IMG/VR virus record: IMGVR_UViG_3300037219_000061
Span: 1 to 43,134 of that record
Direction: 5' to 3' (one strand)
DNA length: 43,134 nt
Source of the DNA: a virus
The position numbers and the translations under genes were made by a program. The notes below the pieces were generated by a model, which saw only the letters and a list, made by a program, of their open reading frames with translations, did no database searches and was not told the DNA's origin. This document shows, one piece after another, positions 1 to 43,134 of the stretch. Each line of letters starts with the position of its first letter. Position 1 is the stretch's first letter.

Positions 1-390
1 CACACGCCCGCGTGGCTTCGTCTCGCAAAACTGGATGCGCACGCGGACGCGCTGTCCGCCCTACCCGAAATCACGGCGATGACCGCAATCCCATCCGTCC
101 GAGGCCCTATAGAGGCGGCGAGACGCGCTGCGGTAGCCGCCGGGGCTGCCGCCAGGGCTGCTGCCTGGGCTGCCCGGGATGCATCCCGGGATGCTGCCTT
201 GGCTGCTGCCTGGGATGCTGCCGGGGCTGCTGCCTTGGATGCTGCCCGGGCTGCTGCCTGGGATGCTGCCTTGGCTGCTGCCGGGGCTGCTGCCTGGGCT
301 ACTGCCCGGGATGCTCTAAAGCCCACCCGCGACTTTTTAATCCGATCCGTCGCCAACCTGGTCGAGCGGATGATCGTAGCGGAGGCTTGA
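1..390 (+). CDS. Ala-rich tetrapeptide-repeat phage protein, 3' part (gene continues from the window's right end)
   Basis: This is the C-terminal part of a gene whose 5' part lies at 42457-43134; the reading frame is open from base 1 and ends in TGA at 388-390. It shows the end of a conserved globular region (HTPAWLRLAKLDAHADAL and onwards), then about 15 Ala-Ala-x-x units, then a short charged tail (LKPTRDF to IVAEA). The repeat should form a long Ala-rich helix. Proteins with this layout are common in phages, but I know of no established function. The stop codon lies one base before the ERF start, so the two genes should be translationally coupled. Compared with the copy at the other end of the window, the array has different length and composition, and edge units carry unusual codons (agg, gca tcc, act). 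A high-Cys reading in another frame of the same DNA is a shadow of the repeat. Confidence 0.85.
   Translation, partial: HTPAWLRLAKLDAHADALSALPEITAMTAIPSVRGPIEAARRAAVAAGAAARAAAWAARDASRDAALAAAWDAAGAAALDAARAAAWDAALAAAGAAAWATARDALKPTRDFLIRSVANLVERMIVAEA
136..312 (+). repeat. 12-base tandem array, allele 1 (AAxx repeat)
   Basis: Fifteen units of the form GCT GCC NGG GNT encode Ala-Ala-(Trp/Gly/Arg/Leu)-(Asp/Ala). One unit is shortened by a codon. Inner units keep the Ala codons strictly as GCT then GCC and vary almost only at the third codon (TGG, CGG, GGG, TTG) and at the middle base of the fourth (GAT or GCT). The outer units are more degraded. Lack of synonymous drift points to recent homogenisation by slippage or recombination. 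Confidence 0.9.
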
Positions 391-399
391 GATGACCGA
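381..399 (+). repeat. 19-base direct repeat, copy 2 (translation-start cassette of ERF)
   Basis: A GGAGG ribosome binding site, a six-base spacer CTTGAG and the first codons ATGACCGA are identical to bases 42446-42464, which start the repeat gene. The two copies flank the whole repeat gene on the circular map. Confidence 0.85.
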
Positions 400-1273
400 T
401 TACGATGCGCAGACCGGCGAGATTATCGAGCAATCCCGCGCGACCGTACCGGCGCCGGTTGCCGAGAGCCGGCAACAAAACCCGATTTTCGCCTCGCCGG
501 AATGCGCCCAGGTCTTCGGCGCCCTCTGCGCCATGCAGGGAGTGTGCGAGGCGCCGAAGCGGACCAAGGAAGCGAAGGTTGCCGGCAAGTCCAGGGGCGG
601 CTCAGACTTCAACTACAGCTACAAATATGCGCCGCTCGAGGAAATCTACGAGACGGTCAAGAAGCCGATGGCCGATGCCGGCCTGGCGCACCGCCAGTTC
701 CTCGCCTCGCGCAGCGGCGCCTGGGTGATGCGCACGATCATCGCGCACCAGAGCGGCGAGTGGTTCGGCTGCGACTATCCGATCTTCTTCGACGAGAGCC
801 GGGGCGCGCAGGGCTTTGCCTCCGGCGTCACCTACGCTCGCCGCTACGGCCTCATGCTGGCCCTCGGCCTCGCCGCGGAGGACGATGACGACGCCAATGT
901 CGCGACAGGCAACACCGCGTCGATCGCGCCAGCTCGGGCGCGCGCCGCGTCGCCTCCGCGAGAAAGTCAGCCGGCGACCAACGGGAGCGCGCCCCAGCCG
1001 CCTCCGCAACCCGATATGGCTGAGGCCAAGAAGCAAAGCCTCGCCGATCACCAAGCGCTGCTGAAGGCCATCGATGCGGCGATGACGGTGCCCGACATCG
1101 ACGCGATCCTGCGCAGCGCGGACTGGACGCAGCTGCACAGCGACATAGCGCGGATCGAGACTGGGGAAATCGCGCTCAACGTGATGCGCAAGCTCGCCGA
1201 GAGGGCGGACAGGCGCAAGACGCTGCTGCTGCACGACCGCGACGAGCTGCTGGGCTACGGAGGTGTCAGATGA
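392..1273 (+). CDS. erf: ERF-family single-strand annealing protein
   Basis: This 293-residue protein should anneal complementary single strands during phage recombination or genome circularisation. The ERF core lies at about residues 40-170: the motif YSYKYAPLEEI, then a stretch leading to TYARRYGLMLALGLAAEDDDDAN, which matches the family pattern TrRY followed by an acidic cluster. A Pro/Ala-rich linker and a helical C-terminal segment follow, as is usual for phage ERF proteins. GGAGG lies six bases before ATG. On the circular map the gene follows a YqaJ-type nuclease (41360-42241), and nuclease plus annealase is a standard two-component recombination pair. The end overlaps the next gene by ATGA. 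Confidence 0.9.
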   Translation: MTDYDAQTGEIIEQSRATVPAPVAESRQQNPIFASPECAQVFGALCAMQGVCEAPKRTKEAKVAGKSRGGSDFNYSYKYAPLEEIYETVKKPMADAGLAHRQFLASRSGAWVMRTIIAHQSGEWFGCDYPIFFDESRGAQGFASGVTYARRYGLMLALGLAAEDDDDANVATGNTASIAPARARAASPPRESQPATNGSAPQPPPQPDMAEAKKQSLADHQALLKAIDAAMTVPDIDAILRSADWTQLHSDIARIETGEIALNVMRKLAERADRRKTLLLHDRDELLGYGGVR

Positions 1274-33619: not shown

Positions 33620-33909
33620 GAGCAGAGGAGGCCGGCTACCTTGCTGACCTCCGAATCGCCGGTGGTGTTGGCGAGGGTCTGAATCGAGCAGGCAAGCTGG
33701 GCGGTGTCGGAGAGCACCGTGACGCCGGTGGCGGCGCTCGCGATCCACGCCGGAAGCTGCGGCAGCAGCGTCACCGCCGCGGCGCCGCTCGCAGCTCCGG
33801 CCAGCGGGGCGCAGGCGGACGGCAGCAGCAGGGCCGCCGCGGCTCCGGCCAGCGGGGCGCACACGGACGGCAGCAGCAGGGCCGCCGCAGCCAAGGTCCG
33901 GCGCATCAC
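33613..33909 (-). CDS. small secreted protein with duplicated signal region
   Basis: The 98-residue protein begins MMRRTLAAAALLLPSVCAPL and then repeats the unit LLLPSxCAPLAGAA almost exactly, from a 48-base tandem repeat. The hydrophobic start fits a signal peptide; a Cys in each unit might also suit lipoprotein processing, although the lipobox is not canonical. The mature part is Ala/Thr/Leu-rich with two more Cys. Position upstream of terL in the late unit. Function is unknown. Confidence 0.5.
   Translation of the reverse strand: MMRRTLAAAALLLPSVCAPLAGAAAALLLPSACAPLAGAASGAAAVTLLPQLPAWIASAATGVTVLSDTAQLACSIQTLANTTGDSEVSKVAGLLCSW
33794..33889 (-). repeat. 48-base tandem repeat in the secreted gene
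   Basis: Units at 33794-33841 and 33842-33889 are almost identical; they differ at three or so positions (GG/AC in the middle and the last base). The repeat codes 16 residues per unit and doubles the hydrophobic, Cys-containing start of the protein. It is in frame and looks recent. Confidence 0.85.
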
Positions 33910-34250
33910 GGGAGCGGGGCCGCCGGAGGCGTGGCGACGGGGGCCGCGACGGGCTGGGCCGGGACCGCCGGATGGATGAGGATCAGGTTCGCCAGCGTCA
34001 CCAGGTCGTTCGCCCCCTTGAGGAGCTTGGCAATGCCGCCCTCGCCGGTCGTCATGTCGCTGACGGTCTGCTCGGCCTCGGCCAGCACCGCGGAATTGGA
34101 GACGACGGCTTCAACGTCGGCGAGGATCGAGGTGAACATGGACATGACGGGTTTCCCTTTTGGTCGTTGCAGGACGAGCTTGACGAAGAGGCGGAAGAGG
34201 ATCGCGCGGCCCCAAGCTCCGATGGCGGCGATCAGCCAGCCGAGGAACAT
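33906..34250 (-). CDS. hypothetical membrane-associated protein
   Basis: The 114-residue product has a hydrophobic, partly amphipathic N-terminal helix (GWLIAAIGAWGRAILFRLFV), a helical middle and a Pro/Ala-rich C-terminus. An alternative start, ATG at 34145 (MSMFTSILADVEAV), has AAGGG nine bases upstream and would drop the hydrophobic helix. Both are possible. It sits between the cold shock gene and the secreted gene. Not recognised. Confidence 0.45.
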   Translation of the reverse strand: MFLGWLIAAIGAWGRAILFRLFVKLVLQRPKGKPVMSMFTSILADVEAVVSNSAVLAEAEQTVSDMTTGEGGIAKLLKGANDLVTLANLILIHPAVPAQPVAAPVATPPAAPLP

Positions 34251-36729: not shown

Positions 36730-37401
36730 ATGGCAAATGATGGCGCATTTCTAACAGTTGCGGTCTCAAGTGAGGAATCCCTAGCTGCTCATATCGTAAA
36801 CGCTAGTGGAGTAGCTGGCACCCCGAGCAAGAGCTTTCAGGCGCGCGTCGGCGAGTGGATGGCCGCAACATTCAGTCCGGAAATCTGTGCCGACACCACC
36901 GAGCGCAATCATCGTTTCCTCGAAGAAGCGCTTGAACTCGTTCAGTCCCTCGGCTGCACGGCGAGCGAGGCGCACCAGCTCGTCGACTATACGTACGACA
37001 GGCCGCAAGGGGATGTGAACCAGGAAGTCGGCGGGGTGATGGTGACGTTGGCTGCCCTATGCCTGGCGGCCGGCAACGACATGGACGCCGGTGGCGAAGC
37101 GGAGCTTGCGCGCGTCTGGACGAAGATCGATCAGATCAGGGCGAAACAGGCAAGCAAGCCGAAGCATTCCCCGCTGCCAGAGGCTAATCTTGAAACTAAT
37201 CTCTGTGATGACTGCCCGCCATTCGATTACACTACTGACGCGACGCGCTGCGCGCCCTGCCCCCGACGTGCCCATCGCATGCTCGGCCCGTCGTGCATGG
37301 GGGCATTGGCAACCAATGAACCGTGTCGTCCCGATGAGACGCTGAGACGTTGCACGATTTGCGGTTTCATCGTGGACACGAAGTTCAAGGCGGAGCTTTA
37401 A
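36730..37401 (+). CDS. MazG-like NTP pyrophosphohydrolase domain protein
   Basis: The 223-residue protein has a MazG-type helical core at about residues 33-140: FQARVGEWMAATFSPEICAD, then ERNHRFLEEALELVQSLGCT with the E-E-x-x-E metal motif, and QEVGGVMVTLAALCLAAGND. Such phage proteins hydrolyse NTPs or may lower ppGpp signals; the precise substrate is unknown here. The C-terminal 80 residues form a separate Cys-rich region (CDDCPP, CAPCP, RRCTICGF) which looks like a zinc ribbon. The combination is a domain fusion seen in phage MazG-like proteins. Confidence 0.7.
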   Translation: MANDGAFLTVAVSSEESLAAHIVNASGVAGTPSKSFQARVGEWMAATFSPEICADTTERNHRFLEEALELVQSLGCTASEAHQLVDYTYDRPQGDVNQEVGGVMVTLAALCLAAGNDMDAGGEAELARVWTKIDQIRAKQASKPKHSPLPEANLETNLCDDCPPFDYTTDATRCAPCPRRAHRMLGPSCMGALATNEPCRPDETLRRCTICGFIVDTKFKAEL

Positions 37402-38665: not shown

Positions 38666-39523
38666 CTAGCGCGCCCACCACGGCGGCGACACGTCGTCCG
38701 GCCTGACGTAAACCCCCTGCCGCCACTCCAGCGGCAGAGCCTTCAGCTTCGGCCCGTAATTGCTCTTCATGCCGGCAAGCTGAAGCCCGTCCTTGTCCTC
38801 GTGCAAATAGAGCCGCGAGCGCACCGAGTTGTTCCACGCGACCGAGCCGGATTCGCCGGTGCCCAGCGCCCGCCCGGTGTTGCTCGGGTGCTTGGTGAAG
38901 ATCACCACGCCTTGCAGCTTGATCGCCAGCCGCCGCAGCAGCGAGATGTAGGCCACCACGTCCAGCTCGACCAGCTGATTACCGCGAAACGTCTGCGTCG
39001 CCGTATCGACGATCACATACTGCGCCCCGAATTGGGCGGCACGCGCCCAAATCCGGTTGAAGAACTCAGTCGGCTTGGGCTTCCTCGTATAATTCTCGAA
39101 CTCCAGAAGCGTGTTGTCCTGGGCGACGCGCGGCAGCAGCAGCAAGTCCTCGTCCAGGTCGCCGAACTCGCAGCCGTAATGCCGGTTGATGTCCGCCTGG
39201 CGGCGCACCATCTCGGGCTCGTCATCCTCGCAGCCGAGGAACAGCACGCGTCCCGGCCGCACGTCGAGGCCGAGCCATTTGCGCCCACCGCCCCCGGGAG
39301 CTCCAATGGCGGCGACCGTCGCGAGCTGCTGAAGCAGCAGCGACTTGCCGATCCCGCCGTCACCCGAGACCATGCCGACGGTGCCCTTGGCAAAGCACCC
39401 CTCGACCATCCACTCGCGCCGCGGCGGCTCCTTCCCCTGCCACGAGGCGAGCGAAACCCCCCGCAGCTCGTCCCGCTCGAAACCGGCGTCAACCCGCCGT
39501 GGCGCCCCCCAAGGCCCCGCCAT
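38666..39523 (-). CDS. RepA/DnaB-like AAA ATPase (helicase family)
   Basis: The 285-residue protein has a RecA-fold: Walker A GDGGIGKSLL at about residue 54, FLGCEDDEPEMVRRQ, Walker B in YVIVDTATQTF at about residue 165, a sensor VVIFTKHPSNTG, and the GTGESGSVAWNNSVRSRLYL motif. This is the AAA_25/RSF1010 RepA-like group, hexameric helicase-type ATPases in small phages and plasmids. It probably acts in replication initiation as a helicase or loader. It lies in the operon with RusA and two small genes, 12 bases after the next upstream gene. Confidence 0.85.
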   Translation of the reverse strand: MAGPWGAPRRVDAGFERDELRGVSLASWQGKEPPRREWMVEGCFAKGTVGMVSGDGGIGKSLLLQQLATVAAIGAPGGGGRKWLGLDVRPGRVLFLGCEDDEPEMVRRQADINRHYGCEFGDLDEDLLLLPRVAQDNTLLEFENYTRKPKPTEFFNRIWARAAQFGAQYVIVDTATQTFRGNQLVELDVVAYISLLRRLAIKLQGVVIFTKHPSNTGRALGTGESGSVAWNNSVRSRLYLHEDKDGLQLAGMKSNYGPKLKALPLEWRQGVYVRPDDVSPPWWAR

Positions 39524-41363: not shown

Positions 41364-42241
41364 TCACCACCAGCCTCTCGCCCGAGGCGCTGGCGCAGCG
41401 TCGCCTCGGCATCGGCGGCAGCGATGCGCGGATTGTCGTGCATGGCGAGCCGGCTGAACGCTACGCGCTCTGGAAAGACAAGATCGGCGAGGCCAAACCA
41501 AAAAAGATCATGTCGGATTGGAATTATGCGCTGCGCATGGCGACGGAAACCCTTCAGCTCGACTGGTACGAGCACTGCAACCCAGGGGCCAGGGTCCACA
41601 ATCGCGGAAGCGTCCTTGTGAGCGAGGACTATCCGTTCATGCGCTGCACCCTGGACGGCGTTCTTAAGCCCACCAACGTTCCGATCAACGCCAAGCACGT
41701 CAGCCGGTGGACCAAGGAAGCGCGCGAGTGGTGCATCGAGCACTACACGCCGCAGGTCACGCACGAGGCCATCGTCTGCGAGGCGGATTACGGCCTCCTC
41801 TCGCTGCTTCACGGCGAGAAGGAGCCGGAGATTATCCGCATCGACGTGGACCCGATCTACGCCGAGCACCTGATCGCCCGCGAGCGCGATTTCTGGCGCC
41901 GCGTCGAGGAGCGGACACCGCCGGAGGACTGCGCCGAGCTGGACGCGCCGAAGACGGCGGTCAAGGTCGAGCGCCTGCGCCATCTGACGATCGACGGCGA
42001 GCCCGGTTCGCCCGCCTGGGTCGAGATGGTGAGGCGCAACCAGTGGGTGCCCGAGCTGGTGACGCTCTTCGGCGATTTCAGCCGGACCCACGCGGCCGCC
42101 GCGGTACATGCGATCACCCGCGAGAACATCAAGAAGCTGCTGCCCGACGACGTCGGCGAGGTCGAGCATGCGCTGGCGCGCGTCACCCGCAACCGCGCCG
42201 GCAGCGTGACGATCGCCCTGAAGGAGAAACCCGATGCCTGA
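41360..42241 (+). CDS. YqaJ-like viral recombinase/exonuclease
   Basis: The 293-residue protein starts at GTG 41360. It has the YqaJ entry RLGIGGSDARIVVHGEPAER, then the catalytic region YPFMRCTLDGVLKPTNVPINAKHV, and a later helix with THEAIVCEADYGLLSLL. In the family the Asp of the LDG motif and an E-x-K (or D-x-K) motif bind metal. Here the E-x-K place reads N-A-K, an unusual Asn. It should degrade one DNA strand to make substrate for ERF. Loss of acid would impair it unless another residue substitutes. Confidence 0.75.
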   Translation: MITTSLSPEALAQRRLGIGGSDARIVVHGEPAERYALWKDKIGEAKPKKIMSDWNYALRMATETLQLDWYEHCNPGARVHNRGSVLVSEDYPFMRCTLDGVLKPTNVPINAKHVSRWTKEAREWCIEHYTPQVTHEAIVCEADYGLLSLLHGEKEPEIIRIDVDPIYAEHLIARERDFWRRVEERTPPEDCAELDAPKTAVKVERLRHLTIDGEPGSPAWVEMVRRNQWVPELVTLFGDFSRTHAAAAVHAITRENIKKLLPDDVGEVEHALARVTRNRAGSVTIALKEKPDA

Positions 42242-42455
42242 GCCTCTTATGCGCCCGCTGCGGTCGAGCAACATCGCCGCCGCCGGCTATGACGACGAAA
42301 GCCGCACGCTCTTCGTCGAGTTCCTTTCCGGCTCGCTCTATGCCTATGACGGCGTGCCTCGCGAGGTTTACGACGATCTTTGCGGCGCCCCCTCGCCCGG
42401 CCGCTACTTCGCCTCGCGGGTCACGGGCGTCTACACCTATCGGCGGGAGGCTTGA
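42234..42455 (+). CDS. KTSC domain protein
   Basis: The 73-residue protein carries a full KTSC domain: SSNIAAAGYDDESRTLFVEF, SGSLYAYDGVPREVYDDLCG and SPGRYFASRVTGVYTYR. The fold is a small beta barrel linked to nucleic acid binding or to lysyl-tRNA-synthetase-like proteins, but its phage role is untested. AAGGAG lies seven bases before ATG 42234. It overlaps the nuclease end by 8 bases. Confidence 0.8.
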   Translation: MPEPLMRPLRSSNIAAAGYDDESRTLFVEFLSGSLYAYDGVPREVYDDLCGAPSPGRYFASRVTGVYTYRREA

Positions 42456-42464
42456 GATGACCGA
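42446..42464 (+). repeat. 19-base direct repeat, copy 1 (start of the Ala repeat gene)
   Basis: GGAGG, CTTGAG and ATGACCGA match the ERF start region (381-399) over all 19 bases. The binding site and start codon of two neighbouring genes are thus identical. Confidence 0.85.
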
Positions 42465-43134
42465 GATTTTGCCCATCGACGAACAAAAGCTTGCCCTCAT
42501 CGAGAGCTTCCATCTCGGCAGGGGGGGGCATTCATCCTTTGCCGTCGGGGCCTGCGCGCTGGAGTTGGTCAGCTATGTCGCGGGCGAGCCGTGGTCCGAT
42601 CATCCGGCGTGCGTCTGCCCGGTGCTGGGCGCGTTTTTCCGAGCCTGGAATGACGGGCTGCCGGACGACGAGCGAAACACGATCCTCAAGCCGTTTCTCC
42701 CGCGGCTGATCGGCACGAACGGCGGCCCCGCGCTTGCCGAGCGACGGGCGCTGATGGCGGCGGATTGGCTGATCCGCGTTCACACGCCCGCGTGGCTTCG
42801 TCTCGCAAAACTGGATGCGCACGCGGACGCGCTGTCCGCCCTACCCGAAATCACGGCGATGACCGCAATCCCATCCGTCCGAGGCCCTATAGAGGCGGCG
42901 AGACGCGATGCGGTAGCTGCCGGGGCTGCTGCCTGGGATGCTGCCTGGGCTGCTGCCGGGGCTGCTGCCCGGGATGCTGCCCGGGCTGCTGCCTGGGATG
43001 CTGCCCGGGCTGCTGCCGGGGCTGCTGCCTGGGATGCTGCCGGGGCTGCTGCCTGGGATGCTGCCTGGGATGCTGCCTGGGCTGCTGCCTGGGATGCTGC
43101 CTTGGCTGCTGCCGGGGCTGCTGCCCGGGATGCT
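42457..43134 (+). CDS. Ala-rich tetrapeptide-repeat phage protein, 5' part (runs off the window)
   Basis: 226 codons are present with no stop. Residues 1-150 form a conserved globular region of a widespread phage protein type: MTEILPIDEQKLALIESFHL, then VGACALELVSYVAGEPWSDH with PACVCPV (Cys pair), RAWNDGLPDDER and RALMAADWLIRVHTPAWLRL. Eighteen Ala-Ala-x-x units follow, up to the last base. The gene continues into 1-390 on the circle, but that copy has a different array. GGGAGG lies six bases before ATG. This family is broad in phages, and the role is unknown; the repeat should form a long helix or interaction surface. Confidence 0.85.
   Translation, partial: MTEILPIDEQKLALIESFHLGRGGHSSFAVGACALELVSYVAGEPWSDHPACVCPVLGAFFRAWNDGLPDDERNTILKPFLPRLIGTNGGPALAERRALMAADWLIRVHTPAWLRLAKLDAHADALSALPEITAMTAIPSVRGPIEAARRDAVAAGAAAWDAAWAAAGAAARDAARAAAWDAARAAAGAAAWDAAGAAAWDAAWDAAWAAAWDAALAAAGAAARDA
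42781..42907. repeat. 127-base terminal repeat, identical to bases 1-127
   Basis: All 127 bases match bases 1-127, and the first mismatch is at 42908 against 128. The repeat marks a circular or terminally redundant genome. Confidence 0.95.
42916..43131 (+). repeat. 12-base tandem array, allele 2 (AAxx repeat)
   Basis: Eighteen complete units, all with GCT GCC in the Ala positions. The variable codons follow the order G-A, W-D, W-A, G-A, R-D, R-A, W-D, R-A, G-A, W-D, G-A, W-D, W-D, W-A, W-D, L-A, G-A, R-D. The final WD-LA-GA units resemble the end of allele 1. The array is cut by the window end. Confidence 0.9.

What the first reader, a model, noticed from the sequence alone, without database searches (positions are those of the whole stretch)
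42916..43134. Hypervariable 12-base protein-coding array with two different alleles in one assembly
The same gene appears at both window ends with a perfectly shared upstream part but different arrays (18 or more units against 15). Variation is almost confined to two positions per unit, TGG/CGG/GGG/TTG and GAT/GCT, and Ala codons show no synonymous change in the inner units. This fits fast slippage or recombination within a phage population, giving a combinatorial set of Trp/Arg/Gly/Leu and Asp/Ala faces on an Ala helix. No reverse transcriptase is present, so a diversity-generating retroelement is not the cause. It would be a second kind of diversity mechanism.
Basis: partly seen in the sequence, partly recalled or inferred. 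Interest (0 to 1): 0.75.

Follow-up and report, generated by a model that had tools for sequence, protein, structure and literature searches.

The report
Phage gene with shuffling repeat array
A phage known from sequence data carries a gene whose 12-base repeat array exists in two versions in one assembly; it is a distant relative of a known mycobacteriophage gene (Tweety gene 54) whose repeat number tunes its ability to overcome host defences, so the mechanism is not new but its spread is wider than known.

Summary
Window 42457-43134 encodes a 150-residue N-domain plus 18 tandem 12-b units (allele A2); window 1-390 holds the end of the same domain plus a different 15-unit array, C-terminal helix and stop (allele A1). 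The shared stretch is exactly 127 b, which looks like an assembler k-mer branch. Internal exact repeats (23 and 34 nt) are far shorter, so two array versions probably coexisted in the sample. Variation sits at unit positions 7 and 11; Ala codons are frozen (18/18 GCT, 18/18 GCC although GCT is 6% of nearby Ala codons).

The claim of a second kind of diversity mechanism does not hold. The N-domain is homologous to mycobacteriophage Tweety gp54 (hhalign E 4e-9; single hit in the Tweety genome, E 2e-10), a published protein with the same 12-b AA-x-y array, whose repeat-number mutants overcome prophage defences. The C-terminus is unrelated to Tweety's.

New here: about 80 viral relatives; 26 of 80 contigs break in the array (1.5 expected), eight with both ends in it; codons homogenised within but not between arrays; array-less chromosomal relatives. 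Best explanation: a variable-length helical arm, changed by unequal exchange, of a counter-defence protein. Function is inferred.

The parts
42457..42906 (+). N-terminal domain (150 aa) with the invariant AGEPWSDHP motif; all-helical AlphaFold model; homologous to the Tweety gp54 N-domain
42916..43134 (+). Array allele A2: 18 units of 12 b (AA[WGRL][DA]), runs off the contig end
42781..42907 (+). 127-b stretch identical to window 1-127; likely assembler branching k-mer
1..127 (+). Second occurrence of the 127-b stretch (end of the N-domain), start of the contig
128..315 (+). Array allele A1: about 15 units, inner units homogeneous, first units with degenerate Ala codons
316..390 (+). C-terminal helix LKPTRDFLIRSVANLVERMIVAEA and stop codon; conserved in relatives, not in Tweety
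392..1273 (+). Downstream neighbour: ERF single-strand annealing protein
   Evidence: PF04404, 3e-15
42234..42455 (+). Upstream neighbour: KTSC domain protein
   Evidence: PF13619
41234..42241 (+). Upstream neighbour: YqaJ/RecE-like recombination exonuclease

Best explanation
The gene is an accessory, probably early, phage gene distantly related to Tweety gene 54. It encodes a helical N-domain, a tandem array of four-residue Ala-Ala-x-y units and a C-terminal helix. Shown: the N-domain homology, the array structure, homogenisation of synonymous sites within arrays, and two array versions in this assembly. Inferred: whole units are gained, lost and copied by replication slippage or unequal recombination; the array forms two long helices folding back so that the C-terminal helix docks on the N-domain, making an arm whose length and surface (Trp/Arg/Gly/Leu, Asp/Ala) change with the array; and the protein acts inside the cell as a tunable counter-defence factor, as Tweety gp54 does, so that array variants are selected by different host or prophage defences.
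For: N-domain: the family HMM scores the Tweety gp54 N-domain at 34 bits against 7.4 for the best of 2000 shuffles; hhalign prob 96%, E 3.6e-9; one hit in the whole Tweety genome, E 2.5e-10; a Methylorubrum relative finds 148 mycobacteriophage records by plain tblastn. Array: Tweety has the same 12-b unit with invariant first six bases and changes at codon positions 1 and 2 (PMC2884959). Tweety escape mutants have more or fewer repeats and gain activity against prophage defences (PMC9262239, PMC8549241). Turnover: Ala-codon diversity 0.04 within arrays against 0.68 pooled over 57 arrays; 15 extra synonymous types against 226 extra amino-acid types; Tweety and Taj share an identical N-domain but have gene lengths of 1125 and 909 b, with equal 5' and 3' units and a different middle. 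Population variation: 127-b branch with internal repeats of only 23 and 34 nt; 26 of 80 contigs end in the array, expected 1.5; eight of them have both ends in the array, L077 with a 126-b shared stretch and two different continuations as here. Structure: two helices 133-187 and 194-249 in the relative L005, C-terminal part at pLDDT 93-97.
Against: No function was tested; the closest protein with a shown function is only about 26% identical in the N-domain and its C-terminus is unrelated. The array part of the model has pLDDT 40-60 towards the tip. Arrays are identical in several groups of close relatives. Contig breaks can also come from low coverage of GC-rich repeats; one isolate (Methylobacterium variabile, L125) also breaks there. 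Gene neighbours differ between relatives.
Confidence: 0.62

Rival explanations
1. The two versions are two gene copies in one phage genome (whole or partial duplication), not alleles.
For: The contig ends do not exclude it; a 127-mer shared by two copies would give the same branch.
Against: All 29 relatives' records searched hold exactly one copy; the record closes on itself as a circle with one set of flanking genes.
Confidence: 0.12
2. Assembly artefact: the array cannot be assembled from short reads and one version is chimeric.
For: Contigs of relatives break here often; one clonal isolate breaks here too.
Against: Internal exact repeats are 23 and 34 nt, far under 127, so a single version should assemble; both versions are in frame with clean unit structure and share the unit order WD-LA-GA...RD at the 3' end.
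Confidence: 0.12
3. The array is a DNA-level element (recombination, packaging or replication site) that happens to lie in a gene.
For: It neighbours ERF and a RecE-like exonuclease.
Against: The unit's DNA is not conserved between relatives (all four Ala codons serve as the array consensus of the first Ala, in 21, 20, 9 and 7 arrays), while the four-residue pattern is; those neighbours are not conserved.
Confidence: 0.05
4. The array is a host-recognition or virion surface repeat diversified for adsorption.
For: Variable Trp/Arg/Gly faces resemble binding-surface diversification (inference).
Against: The virion genes found lie on the other strand (4-31 kb: tape measure, tail fibre, major head) and this gene sits by recombination genes; Tweety 54 has a reported counter-defence role.
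Confidence: 0.08

Closest known systems
Mycobacteriophage Tweety gp54 (with Che8 gp57, PMC gp51; PMC2884959, PMC9262239)
   Same: Homologous N-domain; central array of 12-b units with invariant Ala-Ala codons and changes at codon positions 1/2 of residues 3 and 4; unit number varies (48/26/15) between close relatives; outside the virion genes
   Different: Units are AA[WRGL][DA] instead of AA[GWQ][SY]; C-terminal region unrelated; about 26% N-domain identity; host not known, though close relatives lie in Methylobacterium/Methylorubrum; counter-defence not shown here
Bordetella phage BMP-1 bbp36 VR2 (as described in PMC2884959)
   Same: Variable-number in-gene tandem repeat in a dispensable phage gene
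   Different: 24-b element of a 19-b repeat plus spacers; homology was not tested
Diversity-generating retroelements
   Same: Local protein diversification in phages
   Different: No reverse transcriptase in the window; changes come as whole repeat units, not adenine-directed substitutions

Membership tests
Tweety gp54-type tetrapeptide-repeat protein | Homologous N-terminal domain | tested here: met
Tweety gp54-type tetrapeptide-repeat protein | Array of 12-b units, first six bases invariant, variation at first/second codon positions of residues 3 and 4 | tested here: met
   literature
Tweety gp54-type tetrapeptide-repeat protein | Array differs between otherwise near-identical genes | tested here: met
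   two versions in this assembly after the same 127 b; Tweety/Taj/Wee
Tweety gp54-type tetrapeptide-repeat protein | Homologous C-terminal region | tested here: not met
   the family C-terminal HMM scores Tweety's C-terminus at -0.1 bits, below many shuffles; hence filed as a variant, not a plain member
Tweety gp54-type tetrapeptide-repeat protein | Repeat-number-tuned counter-defence activity | not testable with these tools
   needs phage-host assays
Diversity-generating retroelement | Reverse transcriptase near the variable gene | tested here: not met
   with positive controls ringing

The most novel reading that the evidence does not exclude
Across many environmental phages this family keeps standing array polymorphism within populations, and the order of Trp/Arg/Gly/Asp units, not only the length, is a specificity code matched to local defence systems, so that one phage population holds several counter-defence specificities at once.
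Probability: 0.25. Interest if true: 0.8.

Novelty: new variant of a known kind. Interest (0 to 1): 0.5.

Why it matters
Tweety gp54 is a puzzling, little-studied example of a counter-defence protein tuned by repeat number. These results tie it to a large family in uncultured phages and in bacterial genomes of Alphaproteobacteria and Actinobacteria, show the same signature of array turnover, and give evidence of coexisting arrays in nature. That makes the tuning idea testable outside mycobacteria, and warns that short-read phage genomes are often cut open at this locus.

Tried and rejected
Pfam, NCBIfam and PADLOC gave no usable family for the protein (the FliH matches to Tweety lie in its Ala-rich array and are far below cut-off). 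PHROG 3416 (unknown function) matches only weakly. Foldseek against the PDB gave no significant match for the N-domain or a full-length relative; the second look found only short rubrerythrin-helix matches with Z 4 or less. tblastn of the window N-domain itself in phage records found one hit; a Methylorubrum relative was needed to reach the mycobacteriophages directly. Synteny with ERF, KTSC and YqaJ was tested as a clue and is not conserved. The genome of isolate L125 was searched for the missing half of its gene; only the N-side was found. Constant hypermutability was rejected because several lineages share an identical array. A wish to name the gene after the text string AGEPWSDHP in the literature led nowhere.

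Full report
What is in the sequence. The window is a whole IMG/VR record of 43134 b. An ORF starts at 42457 and runs off the right end: 150 residues of a domain, then an array of 18 units of 12 b. The left end of the record starts inside the same ORF: bases 1-127 equal 42781-42907 exactly, then the two diverge; the left copy continues with about 15 units, a C-terminal helix and a stop at 390. So the record looks like a circle opened at this gene, with two different arrays after the same 127-mer. A shared stretch of 127 b is what a de Bruijn assembler with k=127 leaves at a branching point (my own knowledge of JGI assemblies); one relative, L038, has contig ends overlapping by exactly 127 b. 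The longest exact repeats inside the two arrays are 23 and 34 nt, so one array alone should not have caused a branch.

Is it more than chance. In the right array all 18 first Ala codons are GCT and all 18 second are GCC; in the neighbouring genes GCT is 8 of 129 Ala codons. Differences from GCTGCCTGGGAT lie at unit positions 7, 11 and once 8. This is what amplification of a single founder unit gives, with changes at two amino-acid positions.

Relatives. A search of viral contigs with the N-domain gave 80 loci at 40-66% identity. Nearly all have an Ala-rich array downstream, and most complete ones a C-terminal helix of the kind LxPTxxxLQxSAxxLVxRM. In 26 of 80 the contig ends inside the array, against 1.5 expected from contig lengths, and only 2 contigs end in an equal stretch upstream (the upstream count is read). 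For 29 records the far end was fetched: in eight the far end is also array or C-terminus, so these too look like circles cut at the array (L007, L009, L034, L036, L038, L060, L076, L077). L077 repeats the window's case: 126 shared bases, then two different continuations. All 29 records hold one copy of the gene. Arrays that did assemble have internal exact repeats of at most 121 b, which fits a k of 127 as the limit.

How arrays evolve. Over 57 arrays, nucleotide diversity within arrays is 0.53 at unit position 7 and 0.41 at position 11, but 0.04 for the Ala codons, while the Ala codons differ freely between arrays (pooled diversity 0.68). There are 15 extra synonymous codon types against 226 extra amino-acid types. 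Residues x and y are linked within arrays. Units are therefore most simply seen as copied whole, by slippage or unequal exchange, while variants that change x and y persist. In the mycobacteriophages, Tweety and Taj have identical first 390 b but different arrays with the same outer units and a changed middle, while Ochi17, Modragons, Seabastian, OfUltron and Jinglebell, from separate places, have identical genes. Among viral contigs, three groups with near-identical N-domains have identical arrays, and pairs at 85-90% N-domain identity have entirely different arrays. Turnover is faster than the domain's divergence but not constant.

What it is related to. No protein library names it. The literature gave Tweety gp54: 12-b units with the first six bases invariant, variation at first and second codon positions, and 48, 26 and 15 units in Tweety, Che8 and PMC (PMC2884959), and escape mutants with altered repeat number that overcome defences of prophages Phrann and MichelleMyBell (PMC9262239, PMC8549241). 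The homology was tested: HMM 34 bits against 7.4 for the best of 2000 shuffles; hhalign 96%, E 3.6e-9; one hit in the Tweety genome, at gp54; tblastn from Methylorubrum aminovorans reaches 148 mycobacteriophage records, among them phages also found with Tweety 54 itself. The C-terminal regions are not related. It is therefore filed as a variant of the Tweety kind rather than a plain member.

Wider family. In bacterial genomes the N-domain occurs with an array in Methylobacterium variabile, Methylorubrum aminovorans, Frankia, Microbacterium and a Myxococcales MAG, and without an array as a chromosomal gene in Kribbella, Nocardioides and other Actinobacteria.

Structure. The N-domain model is all-helical, mean pLDDT 88.8, without a solved match. 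The full-length relative L005 is modelled as the N-domain, two helices of about 55 residues separated by a short turn, and a confident C-terminal part. The array tip has pLDDT 40-60, so the hairpin is a hypothesis. I did not inspect contacts; docking of the C-terminal helix on the N-domain is inferred from the confidence values.

How it most likely works. Shown: homology, array anatomy, unit copying, two versions in one assembly. Inferred: the array is an arm whose length and face set which defence component the protein engages, and population variants are selected by different defences. The link to function rests on Tweety gp54 only.

Verdict. A real, well-read observation. The proposed novelty of mechanism is not supported, since the kind is published; the spread of the family, the recurrent cutting of assemblies at the array, and the coexisting versions are the useful additions.

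Noticed in passing
L130-L174 (genome contigs): The AGEPWSDHP N-domain occurs without any array in chromosomes of Kribbella (many species), Nocardioides, Agromyces and others; function unknown, no Pfam family.
   Followed up: partly
window 33784-33911: A second in-window tandem repeat, period 48, 91% matches.
   Followed up: no
window 36730-37401: ORF strongly matching PHROG 8593/14118 (E about 1e-60), unknown function.
   Followed up: no
window 38666-39523, minus strand: AAA_25 (PF13481) ORF, E 4e-26.
   Followed up: no
L080, L074, L065, L073, L081, L128: Relatives whose arrays depart from the AA-x-y pattern (RDLALA or AVAVAAAD types) behind the same N-domain.
   Followed up: no
KY385384.1 (Mycobacterium phage SimranZ1) 37654-37974: Its relative of the N-domain is annotated 'RecB-like protein' in GenBank, probably a misannotation.
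   Followed up: no
window 128-200: The first units of allele A1 have degenerate Ala codons (GCC, GCA, TCC) and a 3-b register shift, while inner units are uniform, as expected if exchange homogenises the middle of an array.
   Followed up: partly
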